Positions 4,988 to 63,552 of a stretch of DNA of 64,000 bases are shown piece after piece. The DNA is from CAVSKL01 sp963728475 [NCBI: Candidatus Eiseniibacteriota bacterium]. GTDB taxonomy: Bacteria > Eisenbacteria > RBG-16-71-46 > JABDJR01. The stretch covers positions 1,798,001 to 1,862,000 of the forward strand of contig CAVSKL010000001.1 in NCBI GenBank assembly GCA_963728475.1. The letters run 5' to 3'. The translations under genes were made by a program, and so were the position numbers. The notes under the pieces are model-generated. The model did no database searches. It saw nothing but the letters and a program-made list of their open reading frames with translations, and had not been told where the DNA came from. Each line of letters begins with the position of its first letter. The stretch's first letter is position 1.

Positions 4988-4990
4988 GGG

Positions 4991-8941: not shown

Positions 8942-8954
8942 GGACCAGAACGGC

Positions 8955-13886: not shown

Positions 13887-13892
13887 GCCGGG

Positions 13893-17097: not shown

Positions 17098-17119
17098 CGA
17101 AAGGCAGGAGATCGTCCGG

Positions 17120-18337: not shown

Positions 18338-18417
18338 TCGGAGGCCGGTGATGGTCTCCGCGGGCCGGTGATGGCCCGAAACGCACGTTCCCCGGCGGGG
18401 GAAGAAGGAGGGACGAC

Positions 18418-46014: not shown

Positions 46015-49000
46015 CTACTTGGCGTCGCCCTCCTTGTAGGCGGGCCGCCCCGGCTCCTGGGGCTGGGCCGCGATCGCCGCCTTGACCAGTTCGATGGCCT
46101 TCTCGAGCTGGGGATCGCGGCCGGCGTTCATCGCCTCGGGCAGGTTGATCACCTCGGCGTCGGGGTCCACCCCGTGGTTCTCCACCTGCCACCCCTTGCC
46201 GGGGATCCAGAAGCCGAAGTCGGGCATGGTCACGTTCCCGCCGTCCATGAGACGGATGCCCCGGCTGATCCCGACCAGGCCGCCCCAGGTGCGGGTGCCC
46301 ACGATCGGCCCCAGGTTGGCCTCGCGGAAGAAGTAGGGGATGGCGTCCCCTCCCGAGCCCGCCCAGCTGTTGGTCACGCAGACCTTGGGCCCCAGGATCG
46401 CCGCCCCCGGGGTGCGGAAGTCGCGCCCCTCGCGCCGGGACCAGAACCCGAGGAAGGGCCGGCTCAGCCGGTCCACCATGTAGTCCGGGATGAACCCGCC
46501 GCTGTTGAAGCGGCCGTCCAGGATCACCCCCTTCTTGTCGGTCTGATTGTAGAAGTCACGGCTGAACCGCTTCACTCCGCCGATGCCGGTGTCGGGCATG
46601 TGGATGTAGGCGACCTGGCCGTCGGTGGCGTCGTAGACCCGCTGCCGGTTGGCCTCCACCCACGCCTCGTAGCGGAGCGGCGTCTCGTCGCGGACCGGGT
46701 CGACGGTGTAGGTGCGGGCGCCGTCCTCGCGGGGGGAGGAGTTCACCTCGAGCTTCACGTCCCTCCCCGCCTTGTTCTGGAACCAGGCGTAGACGCTGCG
46801 GTCGGTGGTGACCGGCTCGCCGTCCACCGAGATCAAATAGTCGCCCTCCCGGATCCCGACCCCGGGCTGGGCGAGGGGAGCGGCCACGTTACCGTCCCAG
46901 TCGCTCAGCCGGAAGATCCTCGAGAACCGGTAGCGGCCGCCGTCGGCCTCGAAGTCCGCCCCCAGCATCCCCACGTTCACGTGGGGAACGTCGGGGGTGT
47001 CGCCGCCGTAGACGTAGGTGTGGCTGGTGGAGAGTTCCCCGATGAGTTCGCCGATCACGTAGTTGAGATCGGGACGGTAGAGCACGTGGTCGACCAGGGG
47101 CTCGTAGCGCTTGCGCATCGCCTCCCAGTCCACCCCGTGCATGCCGGGGTCGTAGTAGAAGTCCCGTTCCAGGCGCCAGGCGTCCACGAACATCTCATGC
47201 CACTCCGCCCGGGGGTCGACCACCGTCTCCAGGCCGCCGGTGTCCAGGGTCCCGTCGCCCGGCTTCTGGTTCTCGGCCGCGTCCACGATTCCCCAGGACC
47301 GTCCCGAGCGATAGAGCACCTTGGAGCCGTCCGGAGTGAGCTGGTAGCCGCCGCTCAGCCCCGGGAGCACCGTCTTGACCTTGCGGGACTCGGTGTCGAA
47401 GTAGCGGAGTTCGTTGTCGCCGCGAGGCGGGCCCTCGTCGTCTTCATCGCTCATCCCCTCGCCGGCGGCCAGGTAGAAGATCTTTCCCTTGGCTGCGCTG
47501 AGCAGGGAGTAGTTGCCCGCGGGGACCGGGACCTCGGAGACGCGGTCCATGAGCTCCTCGGGGTCCACCTTGACCGCGACCGCCTTCTCGTCCTTGTCCT
47601 TGTCCTTGTCCTCGCCCCCCTTCTTGCCTTTCCCCTTCGCCTTGTCCTGGTCCTTGTCGGCGTCGTCGCCGGACTTGGAGGACTCCTCGTCGCTCAGGGG
47701 CGGGAACGGGCGCGGGGCGTCCCCGGCCAGGGTCACCGCGTAGAGCCCGGTGGCGTCGCGCAGCACGTACTCGAAGGCGAAGTTGCCGAAACTGGGGTTG
47801 AAGTGGCGGTTGGAGAGGAAGTAGAGGTATTTCCCGCCGGGATCGAAGGTGGGGGAGTTGTCGTCGGTGAGCTCCCCGGTCACCCGGAGGTTCTTCCCGC
47901 CGTCGAGCGAGTAGAGCCAGATCGAGTTGTAGTTGTTGGGATCGGACATGACGTAGGTGAGCCACTTGCTGTCCGGGCTCCAGGCGTAGTCGGTGATGTC
48001 GGTGACGTTGCTCCGGTCCACCTGGGTCACCTTTCCGCTCTCCACGTCCACCCAGTTGAGGGACCAGGTCTTGTCCGGGAACGCGATCTTGCGGCTGTCC
48101 GGCGACCACTGCTGGCTGAACATGAAGCTCTTGCGGCCGTGGGTGATCTGCCGGGGCTCGCCGGTGCCGTCCTGGGCCCGGACGTAGAGTTCGTACTCCC
48201 CGGTGGCGTCGGAGAAGTAGGAGACCCACTTCCCGTCCGGGGACCAGGCGGGGTAGCGCTCGTACTCGCCGGGAGTGGAGGTGAGCCGGCGGACGTCGCC
48301 GTGCTTGGCGGGCACGGTGAACAGCTCGCCGCGGGCCTCGAAGGCGACCCGCTTGGCGGAGGGGGAGATCGAGGCCCCACCGATCAGGTCCGCCACCTTG
48401 GTGAGTTCGGGCCGCGCGAGCACGGCGTCGGTCTCGACCTGGACCTCGATCTTCTTCGGCTTGCCGCCGGGGAGGTCCATGACGTAGAGCCAGCCGCCGT
48501 TCTCGAACACGATGGAGTCGCCGCCGAGGCTCGGCCAGCGGACGTCGTACTCCTTGAAGTCGGTGACCTGGGTGAACTGCTTGGATCCGACGTCGTAGGC
48601 CCAGAGGTTCAACTTCCAGTCCGCACGGTCGGAGAGGAAGTAGATCGTATTCCCGTGCCACATGGGGAAGCGGTCGGTGCCCTTCCAGTCGGTGACCCGG
48701 GTGCTCTTGTTCGCCTTGAAGTCGTAGATCCAGATGTCCTCGGCCGTTCCCCCCTGGTAACGCTTCCAGGTCCGGAACTCCCGGTTCAGCCAGTTGAAGG
48801 CGACGAGGTCCGTTCCCCGGGGGGAAAACGAGAGGCGTTCGCAGATCGGCAGATCCACCGGCTCCGGCCAGCCCCCGTCCACCGGGACGTGGAAGATCCG
48901 GTCGTAGCGGTGATTGGGACTCGAGCGCTGGGACCGGAAGTAGACCTCCTTCGAATCCGGGGACCAGGTGATCACCTGGTCGCTTCCGGGATGATAGGTC

Positions 49001-49314
49001 AGGCGGCGGGGTTCGCCCCCTTGGGCCGGAATGACGTAGACGTCGGCATTCCCGTCGTACTGGCCGGTGAAGGCGATCCAATTCCCGTCGGGGGAGATCC
49101 GGGCCAACTCCTCCATGCCGTCGTGGGTGGTGAGCCGCCGGGCGGTGCCGCCGTCCCTGGCCACCGTCCACAGATCTCCGGCGTAGGTGAAGACCACCTG
49201 GTCGCCGTGGATGTCGGGCATGCGTAGAAGGCGGCCTTCCTCGGCCGACGCGGAAACGGATCCGGCGAGGGCGGCCATCAGGACCGCCGAGGCAGCAAGG
49301 TACCGGGCTTTCAT
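46015..49314 (-). CDS. Secreted tricorn-like S41 protease
   Basis: The 1099-residue protein has a signal peptide (YLAASAVLMAALAGSVSASA), then beta-propeller repeats in the WD40/PD40 style (ITWSPDSKEVYFRS, PAWSPDGKWVSYFSDATGEYELY, YAWSPDSKWLTYVMSD), a PDZ-type domain (VGIREGDYLISVDGEPV) and the tricorn-type peptidase with SHTYVYGGD (catalytic His), KGVILDGRFNSGG and NSWAGSGGDAIPYFF (nucleophile Ser about 987), and a late Glu in WQVENHG. Tricorn degrades oligopeptides; in Gram-negatives these versions act in the periplasm. A highly charged low-complexity segment (KDQDKAKGKGKKGGEDKDKD) lies between propeller blocks. ATG 49314 starts the signal peptide directly. Confidence 0.93.
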   Translation of the reverse strand: MKARYLAASAVLMAALAGSVSASAEEGRLLRMPDIHGDQVVFTYAGDLWTVARDGGTARRLTTHDGMEELARISPDGNWIAFTGQYDGNADVYVIPAQGGEPRRLTYHPGSDQVITWSPDSKEVYFRSQRSSPNHRYDRIFHVPVDGGWPEPVDLPICERLSFSPRGTDLVAFNWLNREFRTWKRYQGGTAEDIWIYDFKANKSTRVTDWKGTDRFPMWHGNTIYFLSDRADWKLNLWAYDVGSKQFTQVTDFKEYDVRWPSLGGDSIVFENGGWLYVMDLPGGKPKKIEVQVETDAVLARPELTKVADLIGGASISPSAKRVAFEARGELFTVPAKHGDVRRLTSTPGEYERYPAWSPDGKWVSYFSDATGEYELYVRAQDGTGEPRQITHGRKSFMFSQQWSPDSRKIAFPDKTWSLNWVDVESGKVTQVDRSNVTDITDYAWSPDSKWLTYVMSDPNNYNSIWLYSLDGGKNLRVTGELTDDNSPTFDPGGKYLYFLSNRHFNPSFGNFAFEYVLRDATGLYAVTLAGDAPRPFPPLSDEESSKSGDDADKDQDKAKGKGKKGGEDKDKDKDEKAVAVKVDPEELMDRVSEVPVPAGNYSLLSAAKGKIFYLAAGEGMSDEDDEGPPRGDNELRYFDTESRKVKTVLPGLSGGYQLTPDGSKVLYRSGRSWGIVDAAENQKPGDGTLDTGGLETVVDPRAEWHEMFVDAWRLERDFYYDPGMHGVDWEAMRKRYEPLVDHVLYRPDLNYVIGELIGELSTSHTYVYGGDTPDVPHVNVGMLGADFEADGGRYRFSRIFRLSDWDGNVAAPLAQPGVGIREGDYLISVDGEPVTTDRSVYAWFQNKAGRDVKLEVNSSPREDGARTYTVDPVRDETPLRYEAWVEANRQRVYDATDGQVAYIHMPDTGIGGVKRFSRDFYNQTDKKGVILDGRFNSGGFIPDYMVDRLSRPFLGFWSRREGRDFRTPGAAILGPKVCVTNSWAGSGGDAIPYFFREANLGPIVGTRTWGGLVGISRGIRLMDGGNVTMPDFGFWIPGKGWQVENHGVDPDAEVINLPEAMNAGRDPQLEKAIELVKAAIAAQPQEPGRPAYKEGDAK

Positions 49315-50876: not shown

Positions 50877-51537
50877 CGGATGCAGCCCCTTGTTGCCGTG
50901 GACGCCCCGGCGATGCGGGACGCGCCCCCCGATCATGACGCCGGGTTGTCCCGGGATTCAAACAAAAGCGATTCGTACCTGGGAGGGAGGGGCTCAGGCC
51001 CCGCCCCCGGGACCGGGTTCGTGTTTCCGGGCGCGCAAGCGCCGGGTGCGTCGGCGGATCTTCGGCCGGAATCCCATCGTCCGGAAAGAAATCCGACTGC
51101 CGGCCGTGAAACTCGATCGATCTGTCCGATCTGTTGACGAGTATCCAATCCGGTTGACGATGTTGCCCCGTTCGGCGGATAGGACCTTGCAGGACCTCTT
51201 CCGACTAAAGAATAACGGAAAACTAATCATAAGACAGCTTGAATATCGCCGTCGTTGTTTGATAGAACTTTACTGCAGCCTGCGCTGTATCGGACGAGGT
51301 TCGGCGACGCACGCGGGGGGTTCGGGACGGAGCGCCGCGGTCATCGGTGTCGTCCCGGAAGCGGGGACGGCTTGGGCATCCCCGCATGCAATCGGTTCCT
51401 TCCCTTCACGCCTTCGCACCTTCCCGCCCGGCGGCCCGGGGTCCACGTGCCTGCTCCCGGCGCCGCGCTTCGTGACACGTCTTCCGATCGACGGGGGTGC
51501 GCCTCATTCCGCGCCCCGGAAAATGGAGGTCCTCGCC
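50877..51537. other. Divergent intergenic region with an AT-rich island upstream of surface protein A
   Basis: The 661-base region lies between the leftward propeller gene and the rightward surface-protein gene. Bases 51100-51290 are much more AT-rich than the surroundings and contain TTGACG at 51154, part of a decamer (TTGACGATGT) also found in front of the second copy. No -10 box at a convincing distance was found. The reading frame of the surface protein is open through this region, but it does not look coding. Confidence 0.5.
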
Positions 51538-54500
51538 ATGTGTACCAGCCCGACCGCCCGAACGGGCGGAAGGATTCTCGGCGCCGTCGCGCTCGTCCTG
51601 GCCATGATGCTCGTGGCCGCGGGGAGTCCGGCGTCGGCCGCCAACAGCGAGAATCCCGCTCTCTCGAGCGGGGTGAGCGCCAACCAGGTGCGCGGCGCCG
51701 CGCAATCCACCGTGACCGACCCCGCCGCCGACGTCCAGTACAACGGAACGCCGGTGGTGGGAAGCGGTTTCGACTACGGCCAGGTCTATCTCTGGCTTCA
51801 CAACAACATCCTCTACGTCCTGGTCGAGGCCTACGGGCATCCCGGCGACTCGAACGCGGACGGCGGCTTCAACAGCATCAACGGCTGCGGAGCCACCGGC
51901 CCCGGGACCGGGGACGTGGGGGTGGTCGGCGTCGACACCCTGAGCGTGAACGAGACCTACATCTTCGAGATCAACCGGAACTGCGACGAGATCGCGCCGG
52001 GGGCCCAGCAGTGGGACCTGCAGTTCACCCTGGGCGGGTTCAACAAGGACCTGCTGTGGGTGACCTCGGATGATCTCGCCGGGAAGTCCGGGAACATCGT
52101 GGGGGCCTACAACGGGACGTGGGTGGCTTCGCCGCTCCAGGCGGGCGGGGACGCGCCCGGCTGCGATCCTTCGAGCCGGACCGGGGCGATCCTGTTCCAG
52201 ATTCCGAACTGGTCGAGCTACTTCGTGGACGTGAACACGAGCCAGATTCCGGCGGGGCTGAGCCCGGCCCGGTTCAACTGGCGGGTGGACGGCGGGAACG
52301 GCCAGGACCTCATCTCCGAGGACGAGGTGACCGGCGTGTTCGACGACCTGAATCCCCAGATCTCGATCACCAAGACGAAGTCCGACTCGCTCCTGTGCGC
52401 GCCGGGCGGAACGACGGTGTTCACGGTGACGGTGGCCGACACCGGCAACACCCCGGTGACCGGGGTGTCGCTGGTGGACGACCTGCCCGCGGGCCTGTCC
52501 TACGACGACAACTACGTGGACGACCCGGTCACCGCGATCGGGAGCCCGAGCTACGACGCGGGTCTGAACCGGCTGACCTGGCCGGGGTTCGACCTGCAGC
52601 CGGGAGAGTCCCGGACGATCTCCTTCCGCGCCCTGTCCGGAGCCGGCTGTTTCGGCACCCAGACCAACACCGCGAGCGCCTCGGGCCAGTTCAACAGCGC
52701 CTGCGAGGGGCTCCTGGCGGTGGGGCCGGTCCAGGCCACTGCCGACGTCCGGTGCGCCTCCGCCTGCGTCCAGCTCGCCGCCCGGGATACCCTGGGCTGT
52801 GCCGGAAGCACGGTCAACCTCCCGGTCCGGCTCACCAACTGCAGCCTGGACCCCGGGACCGTATCCTCGATCACCGCGACGGTCGACGGCAGCCCGGGGC
52901 CCGGGATCAGCCTCCCCCCCGGCTCGTTGGCGGCCGGCGGGTTCTACGATTTCCAGGTCCCGGTCCTGCTTCCGGCGATCTGCGGCAGCCCGCAGGTTCT
53001 CCGGGTGATCGCGAACATCCACCGCACCGGAGACCTCACCTGCACCGACGCCGACACCGCGTACGTGAACGTGAGCTGCGGTTCGGCCTGCGTTTCCCTC
53101 GCCGGTAGCGACACCTCGGGTTGCGCGGGAAGCACGATCAACGTTCCGGTGACCCTGGCCAACTGCGGCAACCGGACGGAGACCGTTTCGCAGATCACGG
53201 TGACGGTGAACGGGACGCCGCTGGCGCCCCCGGTCTCCCTCCCCGGCGGGCCGCTGGCCCCGGCCGGGACCTACCAGTTCCAGGTGCCGGTGATCCTGCC
53301 CGCGGTCTGCGGAAGCCCGGTCGCGGTCCGGGTGATCGCCGGGGCGTACGACTCCGACGACCGGACCTGCGCCGACCTGGACACCCTGGACGTCTCGGTG
53401 AGCTGCGGCTCGGCCTGCATCGCGGCGACCGCGGCCGACACTTCCGGTTGCGCCGGGAGCACGGTCGGGGTGCCGGTGACGGTGACCAACTGCGGGACCG
53501 GGAACGAAACCGTGTCCCAGATCACGGTGACGGTGAACGGGACGCCGCTGGCGCCCCCGGTCGCCCTCCCCGGGGGGCCGCTGGCCCCGGCCGGGACCTA
53601 CCAGTTCCAGGTGCCGGTGATCCTCCCCGCGGTCTGCGGAAGCCCGGTCGCGGTCCGGGTCATCACCGGGGCCTACGACGTCAACGACCAGACCTGCGCC
53701 GACCTGGACACCCTGGACGTCTCGGTGAGCTGCGGTGCGGCGTGCGTGACGTTGGCGGGTGACGACACGTCGTCGTGTCCGGGGACGGAGGTGCAGGTGC
53801 CGTTCCGGGTGACGAACTGCGGGTCGAGCCCGGAGGTGATCAGCAGCATTCTGTGCACGATCAACGGGACGCCGGTGGTGCCGGGGGTGACGCTGCCGGT
53901 GGACGCGGTGGCGGCGGCCGGGACTTTCGACTTCCAGGTGGCGGTGATGCTGCCGGCGGTGTGCGGGGATTCGATCGCGGTCCGGTGCATCGTGAACGGG
54001 TACGACGAGAACGATCAGACGTGCGCGGACAGCGACACGCTGACGGTGCACGTGGGGTGCGAGCCGCCGGACATCGACGTGGAGAAGACGGCGAGCCCGA
54101 CGCAGACGGACTCGAACTCGACGATCACGGTGGTGGTGAGGAACACGGGCGCCACGCGGTTGAACCCGGTGCAGGTGGTGGACGAGCTGCCTCCGGGGTT
54201 GACGTTGGACGCGGCGCTGGTGGTGGGACAGACGGTGACGGGGACCTGCGGAGCGACGCTGGACTCGGTGAAGACGGACACGGGGATCACGTGGGCGTAC
54301 TTCTCGGGGTTCGCGCTGGACGCGGGCGACTCGTGCACGATCAGCTACCGGGTGGACTGCGGCTCGTTCGACAACGCGTCGCGGATCGACACGGTGCGGG
54401 TGTCGGGATGGTGCGACGGCACGTTCGGGATCGCGGAGCCGGTGACGGCGAGCGACACCGCGCTGGTGGTCTGCACGGGTGGAGAGGCGTGTCCTCGTAC

Positions 54501-55332
54501 GATCGGGTTCTGGCGGCAGCAGTGCGCGCAGAAGGGGAACGGCTCCACCAAGGTGTGCCTGGAAGGGATGTACGGGCTGTGGCGGTGCGTGATCAACGCG
54601 ACCGGGGTGGTGCAGTTCAAGCTGAACGACGGCGGATACGAGACGACGGCGTCCCTGCAGGGGTTGAGCGATGCGGATCTGTTCGCGCATCTGTGCAGCC
54701 AGTTGCAGGGTCCGCGGCCGATGACGCTGCGGGACATGACCGAGGTGCAGTACCTGGGTCTGATGCTGAACTACTGTGCGGAGGCGCTGTCCGCCGGGAT
54801 CCCGGTGGAGAACGCCTTCAGCGGCACGGTAGGGGCGGCGATCGACTCGATCGAGGCGGCGCTGAACAGCGGCGTGAACCTGGGTTACTGGGAGCAGGTG
54901 GCGGACCAGATCAACAACGGCATCGGCGTGTTGGCGCGGTCGTGCCCGGAAGGGGACGATCTGTTCCGGAACCTGGCTCCGTGTGGAACGACCACCTCGC
55001 CGGACGCGGGGTTCAACTTCCTGTCGACGGGGAACCCGGACCGGCTGATGGCGCGGGCGTACCCGAACCCGGCGCTGCGGAGCAGCGGGACGATGATCTA
55101 TTACAACGTGCCGGCGGCGAAGGCGGACGGCACCGTGCGGCTGACGGTGTACGACATCACGGGCCGGCTGGTGCGGGAGCTGGTGAACGTGCCGGCGTCG
55201 GCGGGAGTGCAGACGGCGACGTGGAACCTGAGGGACGCCTCGGGAGCGCGGGTGTCGTCGGGGATGTACTTCTACCGGCTGGAGGCGGGCGGCGAGGCGG
55301 TGATCCAGAAGGTGCTGGTCCTGCCGAACTGA
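51538..55332 (+). CDS. Large Cys-rich surface protein A (DUF11, four Ig-like repeats, FlgD-like C-terminus)
   Basis: From ATG 51538 (GGAGG 9-13 bases upstream) the 1264-residue protein has a signal peptide (ILGAVALVLAMMLVAAGSPASA), an N-terminal beta-rich domain (about 40-270), a DUF11-type adhesion repeat (SITKTKSDSLLCAPGGTTVF, DTGNTPVTGVSLVDDLPAGLSY), four tandem 108-109-residue Cys-rich repeats (nt 52753-54057; each begins CxxAC), a second DUF11 repeat (IDVEKTASPTQTDSNSTITV), a domain starting CPRTIGFWRQQCAQ, and a C-terminal type IX/FlgD-like domain (ARAYPNPALRSSGTMIYYN, VYDITGRLVRELVNVPASAG, GMYFYRLEAGGEAVIQKVL). It is probably exported and anchored at the cell surface. It has a close paralogue directly downstream. 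Function is unknown beyond the domain pattern. Confidence 0.85.
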   Translation: MCTSPTARTGGRILGAVALVLAMMLVAAGSPASAANSENPALSSGVSANQVRGAAQSTVTDPAADVQYNGTPVVGSGFDYGQVYLWLHNNILYVLVEAYGHPGDSNADGGFNSINGCGATGPGTGDVGVVGVDTLSVNETYIFEINRNCDEIAPGAQQWDLQFTLGGFNKDLLWVTSDDLAGKSGNIVGAYNGTWVASPLQAGGDAPGCDPSSRTGAILFQIPNWSSYFVDVNTSQIPAGLSPARFNWRVDGGNGQDLISEDEVTGVFDDLNPQISITKTKSDSLLCAPGGTTVFTVTVADTGNTPVTGVSLVDDLPAGLSYDDNYVDDPVTAIGSPSYDAGLNRLTWPGFDLQPGESRTISFRALSGAGCFGTQTNTASASGQFNSACEGLLAVGPVQATADVRCASACVQLAARDTLGCAGSTVNLPVRLTNCSLDPGTVSSITATVDGSPGPGISLPPGSLAAGGFYDFQVPVLLPAICGSPQVLRVIANIHRTGDLTCTDADTAYVNVSCGSACVSLAGSDTSGCAGSTINVPVTLANCGNRTETVSQITVTVNGTPLAPPVSLPGGPLAPAGTYQFQVPVILPAVCGSPVAVRVIAGAYDSDDRTCADLDTLDVSVSCGSACIAATAADTSGCAGSTVGVPVTVTNCGTGNETVSQITVTVNGTPLAPPVALPGGPLAPAGTYQFQVPVILPAVCGSPVAVRVITGAYDVNDQTCADLDTLDVSVSCGAACVTLAGDDTSSCPGTEVQVPFRVTNCGSSPEVISSILCTINGTPVVPGVTLPVDAVAAAGTFDFQVAVMLPAVCGDSIAVRCIVNGYDENDQTCADSDTLTVHVGCEPPDIDVEKTASPTQTDSNSTITVVVRNTGATRLNPVQVVDELPPGLTLDAALVVGQTVTGTCGATLDSVKTDTGITWAYFSGFALDAGDSCTISYRVDCGSFDNASRIDTVRVSGWCDGTFGIAEPVTASDTALVVCTGGEACPRTIGFWRQQCAQKGNGSTKVCLEGMYGLWRCVINATGVVQFKLNDGGYETTASLQGLSDADLFAHLCSQLQGPRPMTLRDMTEVQYLGLMLNYCAEALSAGIPVENAFSGTVGAAIDSIEAALNSGVNLGYWEQVADQINNGIGVLARSCPEGDDLFRNLAPCGTTTSPDAGFNFLSTGNPDRLMARAYPNPALRSSGTMIYYNVPAAKADGTVRLTVYDITGRLVRELVNVPASAGVQTATWNLRDASGARVSSGMYFYRLEAGGEAVIQKVLVLPN
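52753..54057 (+). repeat. Four tandem Cys-rich repeats in surface protein A
   Basis: Units start at 52753, 53077, 53404 and 53731, with lengths 108, 109, 109 and 109 codons. Each reads CxxAC, LGC or SGC-AGST-like, TNC or NCG, a VNGTP or VDGSP turn, PxGxFDFQVxVxLPAxCG, and ends TCADxDTLxVxV before the next CG. Units 2 and 3 are nearly identical over their last 70 codons. Each unit carries six or seven cysteines, so disulphides are likely. Confidence 0.85.
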
Positions 55333-55363
55333 TCCTCTCCCATCCGCAAATCCCCTGATCACG

Positions 55364-55394
55364 GCGGGGGCCGGGCTCGCAGCCCGGCCCCCGC
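55364..55394 (+). terminator. Terminator of surface protein A
   Basis: GCGGGGGCCGGGCT (55364-55377), loop CGC, AGCCCGGCCCCCGC (55381-55394): a perfect 14-base stem followed by TTCTT, 31 bases after the stop. The same sequence follows the second copy. Confidence 0.85.
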
Positions 55395-55987
55395 TTCTTG
55401 GACGCCCGGGAAATCGTGGGTCCGGTCTGCGGCCGTCGGGGGGGATCTGCGGTGCGATCCGGCGACGGTTCTACCCGGCGGCGTCGGAAATCCCTTCTTT
55501 CGGGCGCGCTCCGGGGTCAGGTTTTCCGCCGGTCGCGGGCGCTTGACGATGTGGGATGTTCGTTCCAGACGACATCTGTAGCAAAACGGCGACAATCTAC
55601 TCCTCTTGTACGCTCAACCTGCTCTGGAGCCAAAACTTAGGCAAGTCGATGGGCTCGTTTGCGACTTGTAAATGATATGGACAGTTTGCGGTAATGGTTG
55701 ATAAAGTTGCGACTTCAATCGGATCAAGCTGGCCGGGGGGCTGGGCGGAATGACGCGAGGCAGGCCCCGGGGCGGTCAGGAATTCTCCTCATCCGCTCCG
55801 GTTGGAGCGTCCGGCTCCGGGGGTCCTGCCGCGAGTGCACGGCGAGAGGCCGCCCCCCCTTCGGGCACCGGTCGGGTCGACCGGCGCGAACAGCACTGCC
55901 GTGATCGCCTCAGGTTCGCGGCAGCCATTGCGATCATCATCCGGGGTCCGCCAGTCTGCCGCAGGCTCCGATACGGAGGTTCCAGCC
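55395..55987. other. Intergenic AT-rich region upstream of surface protein B
   Basis: 593 bases without a credible gene. Bases 55540-55730 are AT-rich; TTGACGATGT (55543-55552) is shared with the region in front of copy A and could contain a -35 box. Apart from this decamer and the GGAGG site at the start, the sequence is not similar to the upstream region of copy A. No promoter was firmly identified. Confidence 0.5.
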
Positions 55988-58804
55988 ATGTGTACCAGCC
56001 CGACCGCCCGAACGGGCGGAAGGATTCTAGGCGCCGTCGTGCTCGTCCTGGCCATGATGCTCGTGGCCGCGGGGAGTCCGGCGTCGGCCGCCAACAGCGA
56101 GAATCCTGCTCTTTCCAGCGGGGTGAGCGCCAACCAGGTGCGCGGCGTCGCGCAATCCACCGTGACCGACCCCGCCGCCGACGTCCAGTACAACGGAACG
56201 CCGGTGGTGGGAAGCGGTTTCGACTACGGCCAGGTCTATCTCTGGCTTCACAACAACATCCTCTACGTCCTGGTCGAGGCCTACGGGCATCCCGGCGACT
56301 CGAACGCGGACGGCGGCTTCAACAGCATCAACGGCTGCGGAGCCACCGGCCCCGGGACCGGGGACGTGGGGGTGGTCGGTGTCGACACCCTGAGCGTGAA
56401 CGAGACCTACATCTTCCAGATCAACCGGGACTGCGACGAGCTCGCGCCGGGGGTCCAGCAGTGGGACCTGCAGTTCACCCTGGGCGGGTTCAACAAGGAC
56501 CTGCTGTGGGTGACCGAGGACGATCTCGCCGGGAAGACCGGGAACATCGTGGGGGCCTACAACGGGACGTGGGTGGCTTCGCCGCTCCAGGCGGGCGGGG
56601 ACGCGCCCGGCTGCGATCCTTCGAGCCGGACCGGGGCGATCCTGTTCCAGATTCCGAACTGGTCGAGCTACTTCGTGGACGTGAACACGAGCCAGATTCC
56701 GGCGGGGCTGAGCCCGGCCCGGTTCAACTGGCGGGTGGACGGCGGGAACGGCCAGGACCTCATCTCCGAGGACGAGGTGACCGGCGTGTTCGACGACCTG
56801 AATCCCCAGATCTCGATCACCAAGACGAAGTCCGACTCGCTCCTGTGCGCGCCGGGCGGAACGACGGTGTTCACGGTGACGGTGGCCGACACCGGCAACA
56901 CCCCGGTGACCGGGGTGTCGCTGGTGGACGACCTGCCCGCGGGCCTGTCGTACGACGACAACTACGTGGACGACCCGGTCACCGCGATCGGGAGCCCGAG
57001 CTACGACGCGGGTCTGAACCGGCTGACCTGGCCGGGGTTCGACCTGCAGCCGGGAGAGTCCCGGACGATCTCCTTCCGCGCCCTGTCCGGAGCCGACTGC
57101 ATCGGCACCCAGACCAACACCGCGAGCGCATCGGGCCAGTTCGACAGCGCCTGCGAGGGGCTCCTGGCGGTGGGGCCGGTCCAGGCCACCGCGACCGTGA
57201 GCTGCGGTGCGGCGTGCGTGACGTTGGCGGGTGACGACACGTCGTCGTGTCCGGGGACGGAGGTGCAGGTGCCGTTCCGGGTGACGAACTGCGGGTCGAG
57301 CCCGGAGGTGATCAGCAGCATTCTGTGCACGATCAACGGGACGCCGGTGGTGCCGGGGGTGACGCTGCCGGTGGACGCGGTGGCGGCGGCCGGGACTTTC
57401 GACTTCCAGGTGGCGGTGATGCTGCCGGCGGTGTGCGGGGATTCGATCGCGGTCCGGTGCATCGTGAACGGGTACGACGAGAACGATCAGACGTGCGCGG
57501 ACAGCGACACGCTGACGGTGCACGTGGGGTGCGAGCCGCCGGACATCGACGTGGAGAAGACGGCGAGCCCGACGCAGACGGACTCGAACTCGACGATCAC
57601 GGTGGTGGTGAGGAACACGGGCGCCACGCGGTTGAACCCGGTGCAGGTGGTGGACGAGCTGCCTCCGGGGTTGACGTTGGACGCGGCGCTGGTGGTGGGA
57701 CAGACGGTGACGGGGACCTGCGGAGCGACGCTGGACTCGGTGAAGACGGACACGGGGATCACGTGGGCGTACTTCTCGGGGTTCGCGCTGGACGCGGGCG
57801 ACTCGTGCACGATCAGCTACCGGGTGGACTGCGGCTCGTTCGACAACGCGTCGCGGATCGACACGGTGCGGGTGTCGGGATGGTGCGACGGCACGTTCGG
57901 GATCGCGGAGCCGGTGACGGCGAGCGACACCGCGCTGGTGGTCTGCACGGGTGGAGAGGCGTGTCCTCGTACGATCGGGTTCTGGCGGCAGCAGTGCGCG
58001 CAGAAGGGGAACGGCTCCACCAAGGTGTGCCTGGAAGGGATGTACGGGCTGTGGCGGTGCGTGATCAACGCGACCGGGGTGGTGCAGTTCAAGCTGAACG
58101 ACGGCGGATACGAGACGACGGCGTCCCTGCAGGGGTTGAGCGATGCGGATCTGTTCGCGCATCTGTGCAGCCAGTTGCAGGGTCCGCGGCCGATGACGCT
58201 GCGGGACATGACCGAGGTGCAGTACCTGGGTCTGATGCTGAACTACTGTGCGGAGGCGCTGTCCGCCGGGATCCCGGTGGAGAACGCCTTCAGCGGCACG
58301 GTAGGGGCGGCGATCGACTCGATCGAGGCGGCGCTGAACAGCGGCGTGAACCTGGGTTACTGGGAGCAGGTGGCGGACCAGATCAACAACGGCATCGGCG
58401 TGTTGGCGCGGTCGTGCCCGGAAGGGGACGATCTGTTCCGGAACCTGGCTCCGTGTGGAACGACCACCTCGCCGGACGCGGGGTTCAACTTCCTGTCGAC
58501 GGGGAACCCGGACCGGCTGATGGCGCGGGCGTACCCGAACCCGGCGCTGCGGAGCAGCGGGACGATGATCTATTACAACGTGCCGGCGGCGAAGGCGGAC
58601 GGCACCGTGCGGCTGACGGTGTACGACATCACGGGCCGGCTGGTGCGGGAGCTGGTGAACGTGCCGGCGTCGGCGGGAGTGCAGACGGCGACGTGGAACC
58701 TGAGGGACGCCTCGGGAGCGCGGGTGTCGTCGGGGATGTACTTCTACCGGCTGGAGGCGGGCGGCGAGGCGGTGATCCAGAAGGTGCTGGTCCTGCCGAA
58801 CTGA
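55988..58804 (+). CDS. Large Cys-rich surface protein B, paralogue of A with one repeat
   Basis: From ATG 55988 (GGAGG upstream) the 938-residue protein has the same order as copy A: signal peptide, N-terminal domain, first DUF11 repeat, one Cys-rich repeat (57203-57529), second DUF11 repeat, the CPRTIGFWRQQCAQ domain and the type IX/FlgD-like C-terminus. Up to about 57196 it differs from A by scattered substitutions (for example FQINRDCDELAPGV against FEINRNCDEIAPGA). From 57197 to 58872 the DNA appears identical to 53725-55400. Copy B lacks exactly three repeats (326 residues). The frame is open upstream to TTG 55802, but the signal peptide fixes the start. Confidence 0.87.
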   Translation: MCTSPTARTGGRILGAVVLVLAMMLVAAGSPASAANSENPALSSGVSANQVRGVAQSTVTDPAADVQYNGTPVVGSGFDYGQVYLWLHNNILYVLVEAYGHPGDSNADGGFNSINGCGATGPGTGDVGVVGVDTLSVNETYIFQINRDCDELAPGVQQWDLQFTLGGFNKDLLWVTEDDLAGKTGNIVGAYNGTWVASPLQAGGDAPGCDPSSRTGAILFQIPNWSSYFVDVNTSQIPAGLSPARFNWRVDGGNGQDLISEDEVTGVFDDLNPQISITKTKSDSLLCAPGGTTVFTVTVADTGNTPVTGVSLVDDLPAGLSYDDNYVDDPVTAIGSPSYDAGLNRLTWPGFDLQPGESRTISFRALSGADCIGTQTNTASASGQFDSACEGLLAVGPVQATATVSCGAACVTLAGDDTSSCPGTEVQVPFRVTNCGSSPEVISSILCTINGTPVVPGVTLPVDAVAAAGTFDFQVAVMLPAVCGDSIAVRCIVNGYDENDQTCADSDTLTVHVGCEPPDIDVEKTASPTQTDSNSTITVVVRNTGATRLNPVQVVDELPPGLTLDAALVVGQTVTGTCGATLDSVKTDTGITWAYFSGFALDAGDSCTISYRVDCGSFDNASRIDTVRVSGWCDGTFGIAEPVTASDTALVVCTGGEACPRTIGFWRQQCAQKGNGSTKVCLEGMYGLWRCVINATGVVQFKLNDGGYETTASLQGLSDADLFAHLCSQLQGPRPMTLRDMTEVQYLGLMLNYCAEALSAGIPVENAFSGTVGAAIDSIEAALNSGVNLGYWEQVADQINNGIGVLARSCPEGDDLFRNLAPCGTTTSPDAGFNFLSTGNPDRLMARAYPNPALRSSGTMIYYNVPAAKADGTVRLTVYDITGRLVRELVNVPASAGVQTATWNLRDASGARVSSGMYFYRLEAGGEAVIQKVLVLPN

Positions 58805-58872
58805 TCCTCTCCCATCCGCAAATCCCCTGATCACGGCGGGGGCCGGGCTCGCAGCCCGGCCCCCGCTTCTTG
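57197..58872 (+). repeat. Direct repeat of 53725-55400 (3' half of the surface-protein genes plus terminator)
   Basis: The 1676-base block from GTGAGCTGCGG to TTCTTG after the terminator keeps a constant offset of 3472 bases from copy A, and I saw no mismatch on line-by-line reading. The flanking sequence diverges immediately at the 3' end, and at the 5' end copy A changes to its extra repeats. Confidence 0.85.
58836..58866 (+). terminator. Terminator of surface protein B
   Basis: Same perfect 14-base stem and CGC loop as after copy A, followed by TTCTT. It forms the right end of the duplicated block. Confidence 0.85.
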
Positions 58873-59196
58873 CTTCCGGGCGGAAGGGGAGCCCCCCTCT
58901 CCGTGGAAACTGAAGAAGAGCCGTGACATTCCGTGCCGTCTCGGACATCATCCCTCGTGAAAAACCAGCGGCTCACGGGTCGGGAGGGCCTCCGGACCGG
59001 GTGGGGCCGGCGCCCCACCGGATCGATTCTGCACGCTGACGCCGCTCAATTTGCGTCGATCCCCTGCCGTCGCCGCCCCTAAATCATTATGCAAATGGAA
59101 CTTACAACTTGGCGTAAGAATTGCGAGGTGACCCCTCCGGAGAGGTCTGCGGGGAGCCCACGTCCTTCCTCCCCGTGTTTCCTGCGAGGAGAGGTC
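58867..59196. other. Intergenic region upstream of the S8 protease
   Basis: 330 bases without a credible gene. It holds a perfect hairpin at 59000-59019 (GGTGGGGC, loop CGGC, GCCCCACC), an AT-rich part at 59075-59125, and a possible sigma-54 promoter at 59109-59125 about 70 bases before the protease start. Confidence 0.45.
59109..59125 (+). promoter_or_regulatory. Possible sigma-54 promoter of the S8 protease
   Basis: TTGGCGTA (59109-59116), AGAA, TTGCG (59121-59125). The GG and GC dinucleotides are exactly 12 bases apart; the second half of the -24 box differs from consensus (GTA against ACG). Confidence 0.4.
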
Positions 59197-61401
59197 ATGA
59201 AAGCACTGAATCGGATTCGTTCCGGATCCGGCGTCCTGGCAGTTCTGGCCGCGGCGGCGCTCCTCGGAAGCGCGCTCGCGGCAGCCGCGGCTCCCGAAGC
59301 GTCCGGTCCCGGCCGGCTCGATCCGGCGCTCCGGCTCCTCGGCGGCGCCGGGTCCCCCCGGGGCATCGCCGGCACCGCCGCCGACGGCCGCATTCCCGTC
59401 CTCATCCGGGGCCGGGTGGATGACGCGGCGCTGGAGCGCCTGGGGATCCAGGCGGGGCCGGCGCGGGGATCCATCCGGACGGCGTGGGTGCCGCGAAGCC
59501 GCCTCGCGGACCTGGCCGGCATTCCCGGAGTGGAGCAGGTCGGCGGCTCCCACGTTCTCCAGCCCCTCATGGACAGCGTCCGGTCCGCGACCCACGTGGA
59601 CGAGCTCTGGCAGGGTCCGCCGCCCGTCTACTCTCCCAGCGGCTACACCGGCCAGAACGTGGTCCTGGGCATCGTGGACACCGGAATCGACGTCAACCAC
59701 TCCGACTTTCGCAGGCCCGACGGCACCACCCGGGTCCTCTGCCTGTGGGACCAGACCGCCCTCACCGGGCCGGCGCCGGCGCCCTACACCTACGGCCGCG
59801 AGTACACCGCCGACGACATCAACGCCGGCCGCTGCCAGGCCTACGACACCAACGGGCACGGCACCCACGTGGCGGGGGTGGCCGCGGGAAACGGGCAGGC
59901 CACCGGGAACGGCTACCCGGCGTACCGCTACGTCGGCATGGCGCCCCAGGCCGACCTGATCGTGGTCAAGGCCAACGCCACCGGCGCGCCGGTCACCGAC
60001 GTCCAGGTCCTGGACGCGGTCGACTACATCTTCCAGCAGGCGGGGGCGCGCCCGGCGGTGGTCCTTCTGGCCTACGGCAAGCAATCCGGGCCCCACGACG
60101 GGACCGATCCGCTCGACGTGGGGATCGACGAGCGTTCGGGTCCGGGCAGGATCGTGGTGGCGGCGGCGGGCAACGAGGGGCTCTCCCGGATTCACGCCGA
60201 GGCCTCGGCGGCGCCCAACCAGACCGCCCGGGTGAGCTTCACCGTCCCGAACTACACCCTCTATTACATGGAAGTGGTGAGGATCGAGGGGTGGTTCAAC
60301 GCGGGAACCGACTATTCCATCACCGTGACCACGCCCTCCGGGGAGGTGGCCGGGCCGATCCGGCCCGGCCAGCAGATCCGCGCCTATACCGACGCGGGGG
60401 TGGTGGACCTGCTCTACATGGACGGCGGCTCCGGACCCGACGAGTTCTACCTGAGCGCGGCTCCGGATCCCGCCGGCGCCATCCCCCTGGGGATCGGCGA
60501 ATGGAAGATCGACGCGCGGGACATGACCGGCGCCGGCGGCGCCACCGACTACTGGCTCACCTACTACTCGATGGCGGGCGGGACCCCGGGCATGACCCAG
60601 GGCCAGTCCATCGAGAAGTGCATCGCATCGCCGGCCACCGCCGGCCGGGCGGTGGGGGTCAGCGCCTACACCACCAAGAAGTACTGGACCGACGTGAACG
60701 GCGGCCCCAAGTACTACATTTCGGCGGTCCTCGACCAGCTGGCCGACTTCTCGAGCCACGGTCCCCGGCGGGACGGCGTGGTCAAGCCGGACATCACCGC
60801 CTCCGGATACGGAGTGGCGGCGGCGCGGTCCGCCAACGCGTCCGTCTCCTCGAGCTACGTGGTGGAGGACGGGGTGCACCGCATGCTCTACGGCACCAGC
60901 GTGGCCGCCGCCGCGGTGGCGGGCGCGGTGGCGATCCTGCTGGAAGAGGAGCCGGCCCTGGACCCCGACGGGGTGAAGTCGATTCTCCAGGCTCGCGCCC
61001 TCCACGACGACGACACCGGCCCCGTGCCCAACCCCGAGTGGGGCGCCGGGAAGCTCTCGCTGGCCGCCCCCTCCCAGACCGGGGTCGGCGACGGCGAACC
61101 CCGGCCGGGGACGCTGGACCGTCCGGTGATGCTGGGCGCGCCCTATCCCAATCCCACCTCCGGGCTCAGCCAGATCGGGTTGTCGCTGGCCGCTCCCGCG
61201 CCGGGGATGGACGTCTCGGTCTACGACGTCGTGGGACGCCGGGTCCGCTCGCTCCACCGGGGCGCGCTCCCCGCCGGCAGCGTGACCCTGTCCTGGGACG
61301 GGGCCGACGACGCCGGCCGACAGGTCCCGGCCGGAAGCTATTACGTGGTGGCGGGGAACGAGGCGAACCGGGTGAGCCGGACGATCCTGATCGTGCGCTG
61401 A
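59197..61401 (+). CDS. Secreted subtilisin-like (S8) serine protease with FlgD-like C-terminus
   Basis: The 734-residue protein has a signal peptide (VLAVLAAAALLGSALAAAAA), a prodomain-like region, and the S8 catalytic core: Asp161 in VVLGIVDTGIDVNHSDF, His221 in NGHGTHVAGVAAG, and Ser568 in YGTSVAAAAVAGAVAILLE. An insertion of about 200 residues between the His and Ser motifs contains a beta domain (NYTLYYMEVVRIEGWFN, YSITVTTPSGEVAG). The last about 85 residues form a type IX/FlgD-like domain (APYPNPTSGLSQIGLSL, VYDVVGRRVRSLH, SWDGADDAGRQVPAGSYYV). A GAGGAGAGG site precedes ATG 59197. It may process or degrade extracellular proteins, possibly the neighbouring surface proteins. Confidence 0.92.
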   Translation: MKALNRIRSGSGVLAVLAAAALLGSALAAAAAPEASGPGRLDPALRLLGGAGSPRGIAGTAADGRIPVLIRGRVDDAALERLGIQAGPARGSIRTAWVPRSRLADLAGIPGVEQVGGSHVLQPLMDSVRSATHVDELWQGPPPVYSPSGYTGQNVVLGIVDTGIDVNHSDFRRPDGTTRVLCLWDQTALTGPAPAPYTYGREYTADDINAGRCQAYDTNGHGTHVAGVAAGNGQATGNGYPAYRYVGMAPQADLIVVKANATGAPVTDVQVLDAVDYIFQQAGARPAVVLLAYGKQSGPHDGTDPLDVGIDERSGPGRIVVAAAGNEGLSRIHAEASAAPNQTARVSFTVPNYTLYYMEVVRIEGWFNAGTDYSITVTTPSGEVAGPIRPGQQIRAYTDAGVVDLLYMDGGSGPDEFYLSAAPDPAGAIPLGIGEWKIDARDMTGAGGATDYWLTYYSMAGGTPGMTQGQSIEKCIASPATAGRAVGVSAYTTKKYWTDVNGGPKYYISAVLDQLADFSSHGPRRDGVVKPDITASGYGVAAARSANASVSSSYVVEDGVHRMLYGTSVAAAAVAGAVAILLEEEPALDPDGVKSILQARALHDDDTGPVPNPEWGAGKLSLAAPSQTGVGDGEPRPGTLDRPVMLGAPYPNPTSGLSQIGLSLAAPAPGMDVSVYDVVGRRVRSLHRGALPAGSVTLSWDGADDAGRQVPAGSYYVVAGNEANRVSRTILIVR

Positions 61402-61564: not shown

Positions 61565-62830
61565 ATGCCTTCCTCAGTCCGATGCGCCGCGGTCATCAGC
61601 CTTTTCGCGATCCTCGTGGTCGGCGGCTTTTCCGCGACCGCGGCGGACGCCGCGTCCCCCGATTCCCTCGCCGCCTCTCTCACCGACCGCGGATTCGAGA
61701 ACGTCACCGTCGACGCCGGCCCCGGCGGGGTCACCGTCTGGTACGAGAACCGGATCTACCGCTACGAGATGGCGGCCCTGGGGGCGGTGGCCTGGCTCTC
61801 CGCCTCCGCGCTCGATCCCGGAACCTCGCTCGAGATCGTCCCTCTCAACCGGGCGGTGCCCATCGTGGCGGTCTCCGCCCCGGCGGGGGAATGGGTGCGT
61901 TTCCTGAACGGCGATGAGGACGCCGGCGCCTTCCGCGGCGCCCTTCGCGTTTCCACCCGAGGCTCCGGCGGAGCGTCGCCGCCCCCGCCGGGAAGCCGGC
62001 GGCTCAACCCCTCGCGCCTGCGCACCGACCTCGAGCTTCGACCGTTGTTCTCGTTCGAGCTGGGGATCGCCGACGATCCCTTCCAGTACTCCCTTTACGC
62101 CGCCCCGGAAGCGGTGATGAGCCCGGCCACCGGGTTCCTGGCCACCGTACAAGGCCAGATCAAGATCAACGACGACCTCGACCCGTTCGCCCGCGAGCTC
62201 TCCCCCGGCCGGAATACCCTCTCCTGGGGCGGGAGGGTGCCCGGGGACTGGCTCGCCGCCGCCAGCGCCGGCTATTTCTCCGATGACCGCTACGGGGCGG
62301 CGGTGGAGACGGGGCGGCTGTTCGGGGACGGTGCGGTGGAGTTCCGGGTAGGAGGGGATTACTCCGGGTATCTCCAGTTCTCCCGCGGCATCACCCTCTA
62401 TTCGGGGCTCAACGCCTGGTCGGGGTTCGCCGCCGCCACCTACCGGACCCCGGGGATCGACTTCGAGGCCACCGTGACCGGCGCGCGCTTCCTGGAGGGG
62501 AAGGCGGGGGGGCGGGTGGACGTGGCCCGGCGGTTCGGCGAGACCACCGTCGGGTTCTTCGCGATCAAGACCAGCGTGCGTTCGGTGGCGGGGGTGACGC
62601 TGGCGGTTCCGCTCCCGCTGGCGAAGGACCCGAGGCCGGCGCGGGTGCGGGTGGCCACGGTGGACTATTTCCCGTTCAGCTACCGGGAGTCCGCGCTCAG
62701 GATCGGGCTCCGCGTGCCCCTCTTCGACAACCTGGACCGGCTGCGCAAGGGCCTCTATCCCACCTTCATCCGGAACAACCTCGCGGATCTGCGCGCGGCG
62801 CTCGACGACGTGCGGGGGAGCGAACGATGA
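61565..62830 (+). CDS. YjbH-like outer-membrane protein, C-terminal half type
   Basis: The 421-residue protein has a signal peptide (VISLFAILVVGGFSATAADA), a small domain with the YjbH landmark GGVTVWYENRIYRYEMAALGAV, then a long beta-barrel-like region of alternating hydrophobic strands (LRPLFSFELGIADDPFQYSLYAAPEA, AVEFRVGGDYSGYLQFSRG, TVGFFAIKTSVRSVAGVTLAV). YjbH (DUF940) is an outer-membrane protein linked to exopolysaccharide production. In usual YjbH this part is the second half of one protein; here it is a separate gene placed before the part that resembles the first half. It overlaps the next gene by 4 bases (ATGA). Confidence 0.78.
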   Translation: MPSSVRCAAVISLFAILVVGGFSATAADAASPDSLAASLTDRGFENVTVDAGPGGVTVWYENRIYRYEMAALGAVAWLSASALDPGTSLEIVPLNRAVPIVAVSAPAGEWVRFLNGDEDAGAFRGALRVSTRGSGGASPPPPGSRRLNPSRLRTDLELRPLFSFELGIADDPFQYSLYAAPEAVMSPATGFLATVQGQIKINDDLDPFARELSPGRNTLSWGGRVPGDWLAAASAGYFSDDRYGAAVETGRLFGDGAVEFRVGGDYSGYLQFSRGITLYSGLNAWSGFAAATYRTPGIDFEATVTGARFLEGKAGGRVDVARRFGETTVGFFAIKTSVRSVAGVTLAVPLPLAKDPRPARVRVATVDYFPFSYRESALRIGLRVPLFDNLDRLRKGLYPTFIRNNLADLRAALDDVRGSER

Positions 62831-63552
62831 GAACCGCGGTCCCGGCGCTCGCGCTCCTCGCGATCCTTCTCCGCGCCCCGGATGTCCGTGCCGCCGGAGC
62901 CGGGGAATACGACGCGGGTCCGATGTCCGGCGGCATGAGCGGGCTCGTCAACGTCCCCACCGCCGAGGTGCTTCCCGACGCGCACTTCCGCGTGGGTTAC
63001 TTCCGGTTCCCCCGCAAGTGGGCCTACGAGGCGCGGGGGTACGACGAAAACGACGTCTACTTCCTCAGCATCGGCTTCCTTCCGCGGACCGAGGTCTCGA
63101 TCCGGGCCACCGTCTTCCCGCACGGGCGCCTGATCCCCGACGCTCCCGCCGCCACCGTGGACCGGATGGCCAGCGCCAGATTTCTGGCCCGGCACGAGGG
63201 GAGATGGCCCGCGCTCGCCTTCGGAGTGGACGACCTGAAGGGAACGCGACGATTCCATTCCCTGTATGTGGTTGGAACCAAGACGCTTACCTTGATCCCC
63301 GGGAGCGCCGGTGTAAAATTTTCCGGCGGCTATGGGTCGGAAGTCCTGCACGCTCACCGGCACATTCTTCATGGTGGATTCGGGGGGGCGGAATTCGTAA
63401 TTTCCGACTGGGCGGCGACTTCTCTTGAATACGACTCCGAAAAATGGAACACTGGTGTCCGGCTGGCGATCCGGCACCGCTTGGAAGTGCGCGCGGCGCT
63501 TCTGAACCTCGAGACCCTGGCCGGCGGCGTGAGCTGGCGGCAGGCGTTTTGA
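62827..63552 (+). CDS. YjbH-like outer-membrane protein, N-terminal half type
   Basis: The 241-residue protein has a signal peptide (ALALLAILLRAPDVRAAG) and then SGGMSGLVNVPTAEVLPDAHFRVGYFRFPRKWAY, the pattern with which YjbH proteins begin (G-GLxxxPTAxxxxDGxxxxGY), followed by barrel-like strands (FLSIGFLPRTEVSIRATVF, ALAFGVDDLKGTRRFHSLYVVG, FVISDWAATSLEYDSEKW, LEVRAALLNLETLAGGVSW). It is shorter than a full YjbH (about 700) and complements the upstream gene. Translation is coupled through the ATGA overlap. The 3' third has lower GC and more varied codons than the rest. Confidence 0.75.
   Translation: MRTAVPALALLAILLRAPDVRAAGAGEYDAGPMSGGMSGLVNVPTAEVLPDAHFRVGYFRFPRKWAYEARGYDENDVYFLSIGFLPRTEVSIRATVFPHGRLIPDAPAATVDRMASARFLARHEGRWPALAFGVDDLKGTRRFHSLYVVGTKTLTLIPGSAGVKFSGGYGSEVLHAHRHILHGGFGGAEFVISDWAATSLEYDSEKWNTGVRLAIRHRLEVRAALLNLETLAGGVSWRQAF

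What the first reader, a model, noticed from the sequence alone, without database searches (positions are those of the whole stretch)
51538..58872. Tandem surface-protein paralogues that differ by exactly three Cys-rich repeats
Two large secreted genes lie head to tail. Copy A has four tandem units of 108, 109, 109 and 109 codons (starts 52753, 53077, 53404, 53731); copy B has one (57203). The 326-residue length difference equals the three missing units. The pair looks like a recent duplication with repeat loss or gain in one copy, which would change the length of a surface stalk while keeping the head and the anchor. Each unit is rich in Cys and carries VNGTP-type turns. I do not know this repeat family by name.
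Basis: partly seen in the sequence, partly recalled or inferred. Interest (0 to 1): 0.78.

Follow-up and report, generated by a model that had tools for sequence, protein, structure and literature searches.

The report
Long and short twin surface-protein genes
A bacterium carries two neighbouring, nearly identical genes for what looks like a secreted surface protein, one with four and one with one copy of an immunoglobulin-like spacer domain, and the DNA suggests that the two genes have exchanged sequence; this is a tidy example of known processes rather than a new kind of system.

Summary
Gene A (51538-55332, 1264 aa) and gene B (55988-58804, 938 aa) differ by 326 residues, exactly A's units 1-3; B's one unit equals A's unit 4 base for base. 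The unit is best named CARDB-like: single units miss Pfam's cut-off, but whole protein A passes it and the predicted fold agrees. Around it lie a signal-like start, an unnamed head, DUF11-type domains, an unnamed Cys-rich domain and a C-terminal type IX secretion sorting domain. 'Recent duplication' is incomplete: the pair is mosaic, 1218 bp at 97.95% (dS 0.034), then 1676 bp at 100% through a hairpin, which fits gene conversion or a fresher copying of the 3' part. Detected homology runs only from ribosome-binding site to hairpin. Units 2 and 3 are mosaic too. Best reading: long and short forms of one T9SS-exported surface protein, kept alike by recombination. Function, population variation and direction (loss or gain) are untested: no whole genome is held for the window and no full-length relative was found. 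Periscope-like in idea, not shown to be a Periscope Protein.

The parts
51525..51537 (+). shared upstream edge of the A/B homology, with a GGAGGT-type ribosome-binding site (by eye)
   Evidence: blastn block starts here; 3 of the 25 mismatches lie here
51538..55332 (+). gene A, 1264 aa, long form with four units
   Evidence: open frame, ATG at 51538
51643..52350 (+). gene A N-terminal 'head', about residues 36-271, no named family
   Evidence: tested on B's copy: no Pfam match at or above cut-off; PDB sequence search gave one weak hit, Sec31A, E 0.012; 0 of 296 genomes of one phylum
52351..52752 (+). DUF11 domain a (gene A about residues 272-405)
   Evidence: PF01345 residues 275-383
52753..53076 (+). 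CARDB-like unit 1 (108 aa, 6 Cys)
   Evidence: no Pfam match when scanned singly
53077..53403 (+). CARDB-like unit 2 (109 aa, 6 Cys)
   Evidence: CARDB 19.1 bits against cut-off 22.7
53404..53730 (+). CARDB-like unit 3 (109 aa, 6 Cys)
   Evidence: CARDB 21.9 bits against cut-off 22.7
53731..54057 (+). CARDB-like unit 4 (109 aa, 8 Cys), identical to B's unit
   Evidence: CARDB 14.6 bits; AF2 model pLDDT 81.2
54058..54468 (+). DUF11/DUF7933-type domain b (gene A about residues 841-977)
   Evidence: PF25564 residues 851-941
54469..55002 (+). Cys-rich unnamed domain with 'RTIGFW' (gene A about residues 978-1155)
   Evidence: tested on B's copy: no Pfam match; low-confidence model, pLDDT 49.2
55003..55332 (+). 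type IX secretion C-terminal sorting domain (gene A residues 1156-1264 and stop)
   Evidence: TIGR04183 38.6 bits, cut-off 23; FlgD_ig 32.8 bits, cut-off 27
55363..55394 (+). terminator-like hairpin behind gene A, inside the 100% block
   Evidence: minimum free energy -39.8 kcal/mol, z -3.83 for 55350-55410; two exact copies in the window; not flagged by the consensus terminator scan
53725..55400 (+). 3' block of A, 100% identical to 57197-58872
55401..55974 (.). 574-bp spacer without detected similarity to the flank upstream of A or downstream of B; one promoter-like site at 55678-55707
55988..58804 (+). gene B, 938 aa, short form with one unit
57193..57196 (+). B junction: 4 bp in place of A's 982 bp (52743-53724), net 978 bp in frame
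57203..57529 (+). B's one CARDB-like unit, identical to A unit 4
57197..58872 (+). 3' block of B, 100% identical to A
58835..58866 (+). terminator-like hairpin behind gene B
   Evidence: one site flagged, 3.6 expected in shuffles

Best explanation
Genes A and B encode a long and a short form of one secreted protein that is exported and anchored by a type IX-type C-terminal sorting domain; the four or one CARDB-like units, probably held by disulfides, act as spacers between the DUF11 domain behind the N-terminal head and the C-terminal half. The two paralogues are kept alike by homologous recombination. The latest exchange (gene conversion or a re-copying) made everything from unit 4 to the hairpin identical and stopped where collinear homology ends, at the 978-bp length difference. 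Shown: domain matches, exact unit arithmetic, two-level mosaic, flanks without detected similarity. Inferred: export, surface position, disulfides, spacer role, recombination as the cause.
For: 3' block: 0 differences in 1676 bp and 0 at 413 synonymous sites, against 10 at 305 in the 5' block (dS 0.0335, dN 0.0135); chance of no synonymous change about 1e-6 at equal rates. The 100% block includes the non-coding hairpin and ends sharply. The longest identical run in the 5' block, 412 bp, is unusual (P 0.002). Flank comparisons do not exceed shuffles (54 of 200 and 155 of 200 shuffles reach the upstream and downstream scores). Units 2/3: 33 of the first 120 against 10 of the last 207 positions differ. 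Fold: CARDB structure 3idu_B Z 10.4, 94 aligned, rmsd 2.5; 3idu_A Foldseek E 4.7e-4, TM 0.64. Sorting domain TIGR04183 38.6 (A) and 39.1 (B) bits, cut-off 23.
Against: Direction and timing are unresolved: 4 bp at B's junction (57193-57196) match neither A partner cleanly. The model resembles many other sandwich domains at about the same or higher Z (best 10.9), and Foldseek's top rows are TRAP-complex chains, so the fold alone does not single out CARDB. Pfam's CssAB (CS6 fimbrial subunit) also passes its cut-off in A, 25.7 against 23.6, over residues 595-652. No related genome could be centred on. Unit pairs other than 2/3 are only 65-71% alike in DNA, little substrate for easy repeat gain or loss. 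The split in the units 2/3 test was chosen after looking. The flank test has little power for old, decayed homology.
Confidence: 0.68

Rival explanations
1. A single duplicative insertion or duplication made the second gene recently; the 5' parts then diverged fast under relaxed or diversifying selection while the 3' parts stayed identical.
For: Nonsynonymous changes outnumber synonymous ones in the 5' block by count, 12 against 10, though per site dN is below dS (0.0135 against 0.0335); detected homology has sharp gene-to-hairpin edges like a copied cassette.
Against: Synonymous sites also differ between the blocks (10 at 305 against 0 at 413, P about 1e-6) and non-coding 3' bases are identical, so selection on protein does not explain it; the spacer matches neither flank as a plain tandem duplication would give.
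Confidence: 0.17
2. Assembly artefact: one locus, or a mixture of strains with one long and one short allele, was laid out as two genes.
For: A 1676-bp exact repeat and a strain-mixed sample are the usual setting for such errors (general knowledge); no reads are available here.
Against: The two copies have different sequence on both sides and distinct 5' halves with 25 differences; given one linear molecule with these junctions and two copies of the identical block, only one order of pieces is possible (inference). Extra copies of the inner segment could still be hidden.
Confidence: 0.1
3. Population-level length switching (compatible with the best explanation, not exclusive of it): the direct repeats let cells flip between long-only, short-only and paired states, as in Periscope Proteins and antigenic-variation loci.
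For: Two direct repeats, 1676 bp at 100% offset by 3472 bp and 1218 bp at 97.95% offset by 4450 bp (coordinates), would on loop-out leave a four-unit or a one-unit gene respectively (inference).
Against: No population or strain data; the units themselves are mostly too diverged for easy slippage.
Confidence: 0.15

Closest known systems
Periscope Proteins (PMC8201768, PMC9704523; passages seen)
   Same: Tandem, separately folding domains as a stalk of variable length on a surface protein; recombination proposed as cause.
   Different: There the repeats are highly identical and number varies between strains; here five of six unit pairs are 47-59% identical in protein and the variation is between two paralogues in one sequence.
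Helicobacter pylori paralogous adhesins with gene conversion (AlpA, PMC5971833: abstract and outline seen; BabA/BabB, PMC3444412: search listing with the start of the abstract)
   Same: Surface adhesin genes in which gene conversion or intragenomic recombination is reported.
   Different: Adhesins of a named pathogen; no whole-domain length difference is described in what was seen.
CARDB domain (PF07705; PF1109 structure 3idu)
   Same: Sandwich of about 100 residues; best-scoring Pfam family for units 2 and 3 and a good fold match.
   Different: Six to eight Cys per unit here; single units fall below Pfam's cut-off.
T9SS type A sorting domain proteins (TIGR04183)
   Same: C-terminal domain above cut-off in A and B.
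   Different: Organism not identified; secretion genes not seen among the proteins scanned.

Membership tests
CARDB (PF07705) | Pfam profile match at or above gathering score | tested here: inconclusive
   Whole protein A 47.8 bits (cut-off 22.7) but B 19.0; units alone: no match, 19.1, 21.9, 14.6
CARDB (PF07705) | CARDB fold | tested here: inconclusive
   Model pLDDT 81.2; 3idu_B Z 10.4, rmsd 2.5, 94 aligned, but tied with other domains up to Z 10.9
CS6 fimbrial subunit (PF16831, CssAB) | Pfam profile match at or above gathering score | tested here: inconclusive
   A 25.7 bits against 23.6 over residues 595-652, across the unit 2/3 border; not listed for B nor for single units; PDB hit 4b9g E 0.2
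T9SS type A cargo | C-terminal sorting domain above TIGR04183 cut-off | tested here: met
   A 38.6, B 39.1 bits, cut-off 23; Pfam Por_Secre_tail 24.8 and 25.4, just below its cut-off 27
T9SS type A cargo | T9SS machinery in the same genome | not testable with these tools
   No whole genome held
Periscope Proteins | Long, highly identical tandem repeat domains | tested here: not met
   1 of 6 unit pairs above 80% in protein and DNA; the other five 65-71% DNA
Periscope Proteins | Repeat number varies between strains or in the population | not testable with these tools
   No relative or reads; only paralogue variation seen
Periscope Proteins | Attached to the cell surface | not testable with these tools
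   Only inferred from a signal-like N terminus (by eye) and the sorting domain
Gene conversion between paralogues | Sharp change of divergence inside the pair, also at synonymous and non-coding sites | tested here: met
   0 at 413 against 10 at 305 synonymous sites; identical hairpin. A fresher copying of the 3' part would look the same.
Gene conversion between paralogues | Paralogues more alike to each other than to their orthologues in relatives | not testable with these tools
   No full-length relative found

The most novel reading that the evidence does not exclude
The locus is a length-switching cassette for a T9SS-anchored surface protein: two separately transcribed genes give long and short stalks at once, and their direct repeats let the population interconvert four-unit, one-unit and paired states, with disulfide-stapled CARDB-like units as the variable spacer.
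Probability: 0.15. Interest if true: 0.55.

Novelty: new member of a known kind. Interest (0 to 1): 0.3.

Why it matters
It is a clean snapshot, within one sequence, of how whole sandwich units differ between two copies of a surface protein while the 3' part is kept identical, most likely by recombination, in an organism for which the searches made found no full-length relative. If population data showed both forms interconverting, it would extend the variable-stalk idea to type IX secretion cargo. Otherwise it is ordinary paralogue evolution.

Tried and rejected
Relatives: gene A protein against genome contigs gave 12 pattern stretches and no relative; gene B against viral contigs gave 4 and none; the unit alignment against viral contigs gave 68 and none; gene B against plasmids gave none. 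A RecG scan meant to place the organism kept 80 loci of 580 relatives, best-segment identity 46% or less, so the phylum stays unknown and no near genome could be centred on; FtsZ was 49-52% identical in the three genomes tried. Searches of whole genomes reached through L001 (title: Bacteroidetes) and L003 (title: Chloroflexi): gene B in 58 genomes matched in 57, and every listed match ended in the C-terminal sorting domain (further rows were not listed); the RTIGFW domain 0 of 296 and 0 of 301; the head 0 of 296; the unit profile, at E 1e-5, 1 of 296 (L092, one sandwich-like stretch in a larger protein with a sorting-like end by eye) and 0 of 301. These empty answers carry little weight, as no positive genome was known.

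Rejected: a clean crossover between A's unit 1 and unit 4 starts as the source of B, because 4 bp at the junction fit neither; decayed upstream homology was not detected, scores being no better than shuffles, though old homology could be missed. The RTIGFW domain model is too poor to search (pLDDT 49.2). Rfam on 50900-59200 at gathering thresholds: no match. PHROGs: no match for A. PDB by sequence for A: the sorting domain (PorU 6za2, E 3.4e-5) and a weak hit to CS6 (4b9g, E 0.2); for the unit profile one weak hit (E 0.31). The consensus terminator scan flagged only B's hairpin, 1 site against 3.6 expected in shuffles, so it adds no support. The fold comparison lists many sandwich domains; absence of a family from it proves nothing.

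Paper searches: 'Eisenbacteria' with 'type IX secretion', CARDB with type IX secretion, CARDB with adhesin and stalk, gene conversion with tandem paralogs, surface protein and bacteria and three of four type IX/FlgD terms returned none; (32 papers) listed only off-topic papers, apparently through words such as 'cardboard'. The guess of Eisenbacteria came from memory (GC, FlgD-type tails) and was not tested.
Full report
What was checked. The frames of gene A and gene B are open to 55332 and 58804; from the ATGs at 51538 and 55988 they give 1264 and 938 aa. The frames also extend upstream of these ATGs; I chose them because the homology and a GGAGGT motif begin just ahead. Tandem Repeats Finder sees the 327-bp period independently. 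'VNGTP' holds exactly for units 2 and 3 only.

What the protein is. The start looks like a signal peptide by eye (printed). Pfam gives, above cut-off in A, DUF11 (two stretches), CARDB, FlgD_ig, DUF7507, DUF7933 and CssAB; in B the same without CARDB (19.0 against 22.7) and CssAB. NCBIfam gives the type IX secretion sorting domain TIGR04183 above its cut-off in both proteins (38.6 and 39.1 bits, cut-off 23), while Pfam's own model of it is just below cut-off (24.8 and 25.4, cut-off 27). The sorting domain is also where every listed match of B ended in 57 of 58 genomes. The N-terminal head and the Cys-rich RTIGFW domain match no Pfam family at cut-off.

What the repeat is. Singly, unit 1 has no Pfam match and units 2, 3 and 4 score 19.1, 21.9 and 14.6 bits for CARDB against a cut-off of 22.7; whole protein A reaches 47.8. 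CssAB, a fimbrial subunit family, also passes its cut-off in A (25.7 against 23.6), but over the border of units 2 and 3 and not in single units. A four-row alignment gave a confident model of unit 4 (pLDDT 81.2, pTM 0.72), all strands. Foldseek ranks the CARDB domain of PF1109 (3idu) ninth with E 4.7e-4 and TM 0.64, behind TRAP-complex, Spo0M and sialidase chains; VIA-align gives it Z 10.4 over 94 residues, tied with other domains up to Z 10.9. 'CARDB-like' is thus the best name, not proven membership. Six Cys are invariant in the four units; unit 4 has two more, in two different predicted strands, which fits a gained disulfide (inference).

How the pair evolved. A and B match over 51525-52742 / 55975-57192 at 97.95% without gaps and over 53725-55400 / 57197-58872 at 100%. 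In codons, the 5' block has 10 synonymous and 12 nonsynonymous differences (dS 0.0335, dN 0.0135) and the 3' block none at 413 synonymous sites; at equal rates that has a chance of about 1e-6, or 8e-16 counting all sites. The identical block runs past the stop codon through a strong hairpin and ends there. Inside the 5' block one identical run of 412 bp is itself unlikely (P 0.002). The 400 bp upstream and the downstream flanks do not exceed shuffled scores (reached by 54 of 200 and 155 of 200 shuffles), and the 574-bp spacer matches neither flank. Together this points to an exchange that homogenised the 3' part up to the edge of collinear homology. Whether the whole duplication is old and repeatedly converted, or recent as a cassette and once converted, is open.

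The length difference. B has 4 bp (57193-57196) where A has 982 bp (52743-53724), a net in-frame 978 bp. Those 4 bp fit neither A's entry to unit 1 nor its entry to unit 4 cleanly, so a simple crossover between the two is not seen, and loss in B cannot be told from gain in A. Units 2 and 3 are a mosaic too: 33 differences in the first 120 bp, 10 in the last 207 (Fisher P 1e-8, split chosen after looking), which suggests recombination inside the array, though uneven constraint could also contribute.

How it may work. The domain order suggests a secreted, anchored protein in which CARDB-like units set the distance between the DUF11 domain behind the head and the C-terminal half. The consensus scan flags B's hairpin as a terminator but not A's identical stem, probably because A's tail lies beyond the homology and has fewer T; overall it found 1 site against 3.6 expected, so it is no evidence by itself. 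One promoter-like site lies in the spacer at 55678-55707 and another at 58923-58951 (2 found, 0.5 expected). Separate expression of the short form is thus possible but unproven.

Limits. No whole genome is held for the window, so genome-wide copies, secretion genes and reads could not be examined. Searches for full-length relatives found none and could not be centred on the right lineage. The verdict is an ordinary but tidy case: a new member of a known kind, interest 0.3.

Noticed in passing
2648-19584: Cell-wall and division cluster: a PBP2/FtsI-type protein, murE, murF, mraY, murD, FtsW-type, murG, murC, FtsQ-type, ftsA, ftsZ.
   Followed up: partly
11607-13886: The ORF that holds MurG starts right behind the FtsW-type ORF and has about 375 extra N-terminal residues without a Pfam match, over a stretch with short tandem repeats at 12410-12602; a too-early start is possible.
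   Followed up: partly
15211-17097: FtsQ-type ORF with about 400 residues ahead of the POTRA domain and no Pfam match there.
   Followed up: no
59089-61401: Subtilase-family protein with a FlgD-type C-terminal domain directly behind gene B; the T9SS sorting model scores just below cut-off, 20.8 against 23.
   Followed up: no
46015-49314: Minus-strand tricorn-like protease with PD40, PDZ and S41 domains.
   Followed up: no
61565-63552: Two neighbouring ORFs match YjbH in reverse order: the first the middle of the profile (268-453 of 658), the second its start (6-132).
   Followed up: no
53731-54057: Unit 4 carries two Cys (residues 42 and 86 of the unit) absent from units 1-3, each in a different predicted strand.
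   Followed up: partly
53077-53730: Units 2 and 3 differ at 33 of the first 120 but 10 of the last 207 positions.
   Followed up: partly
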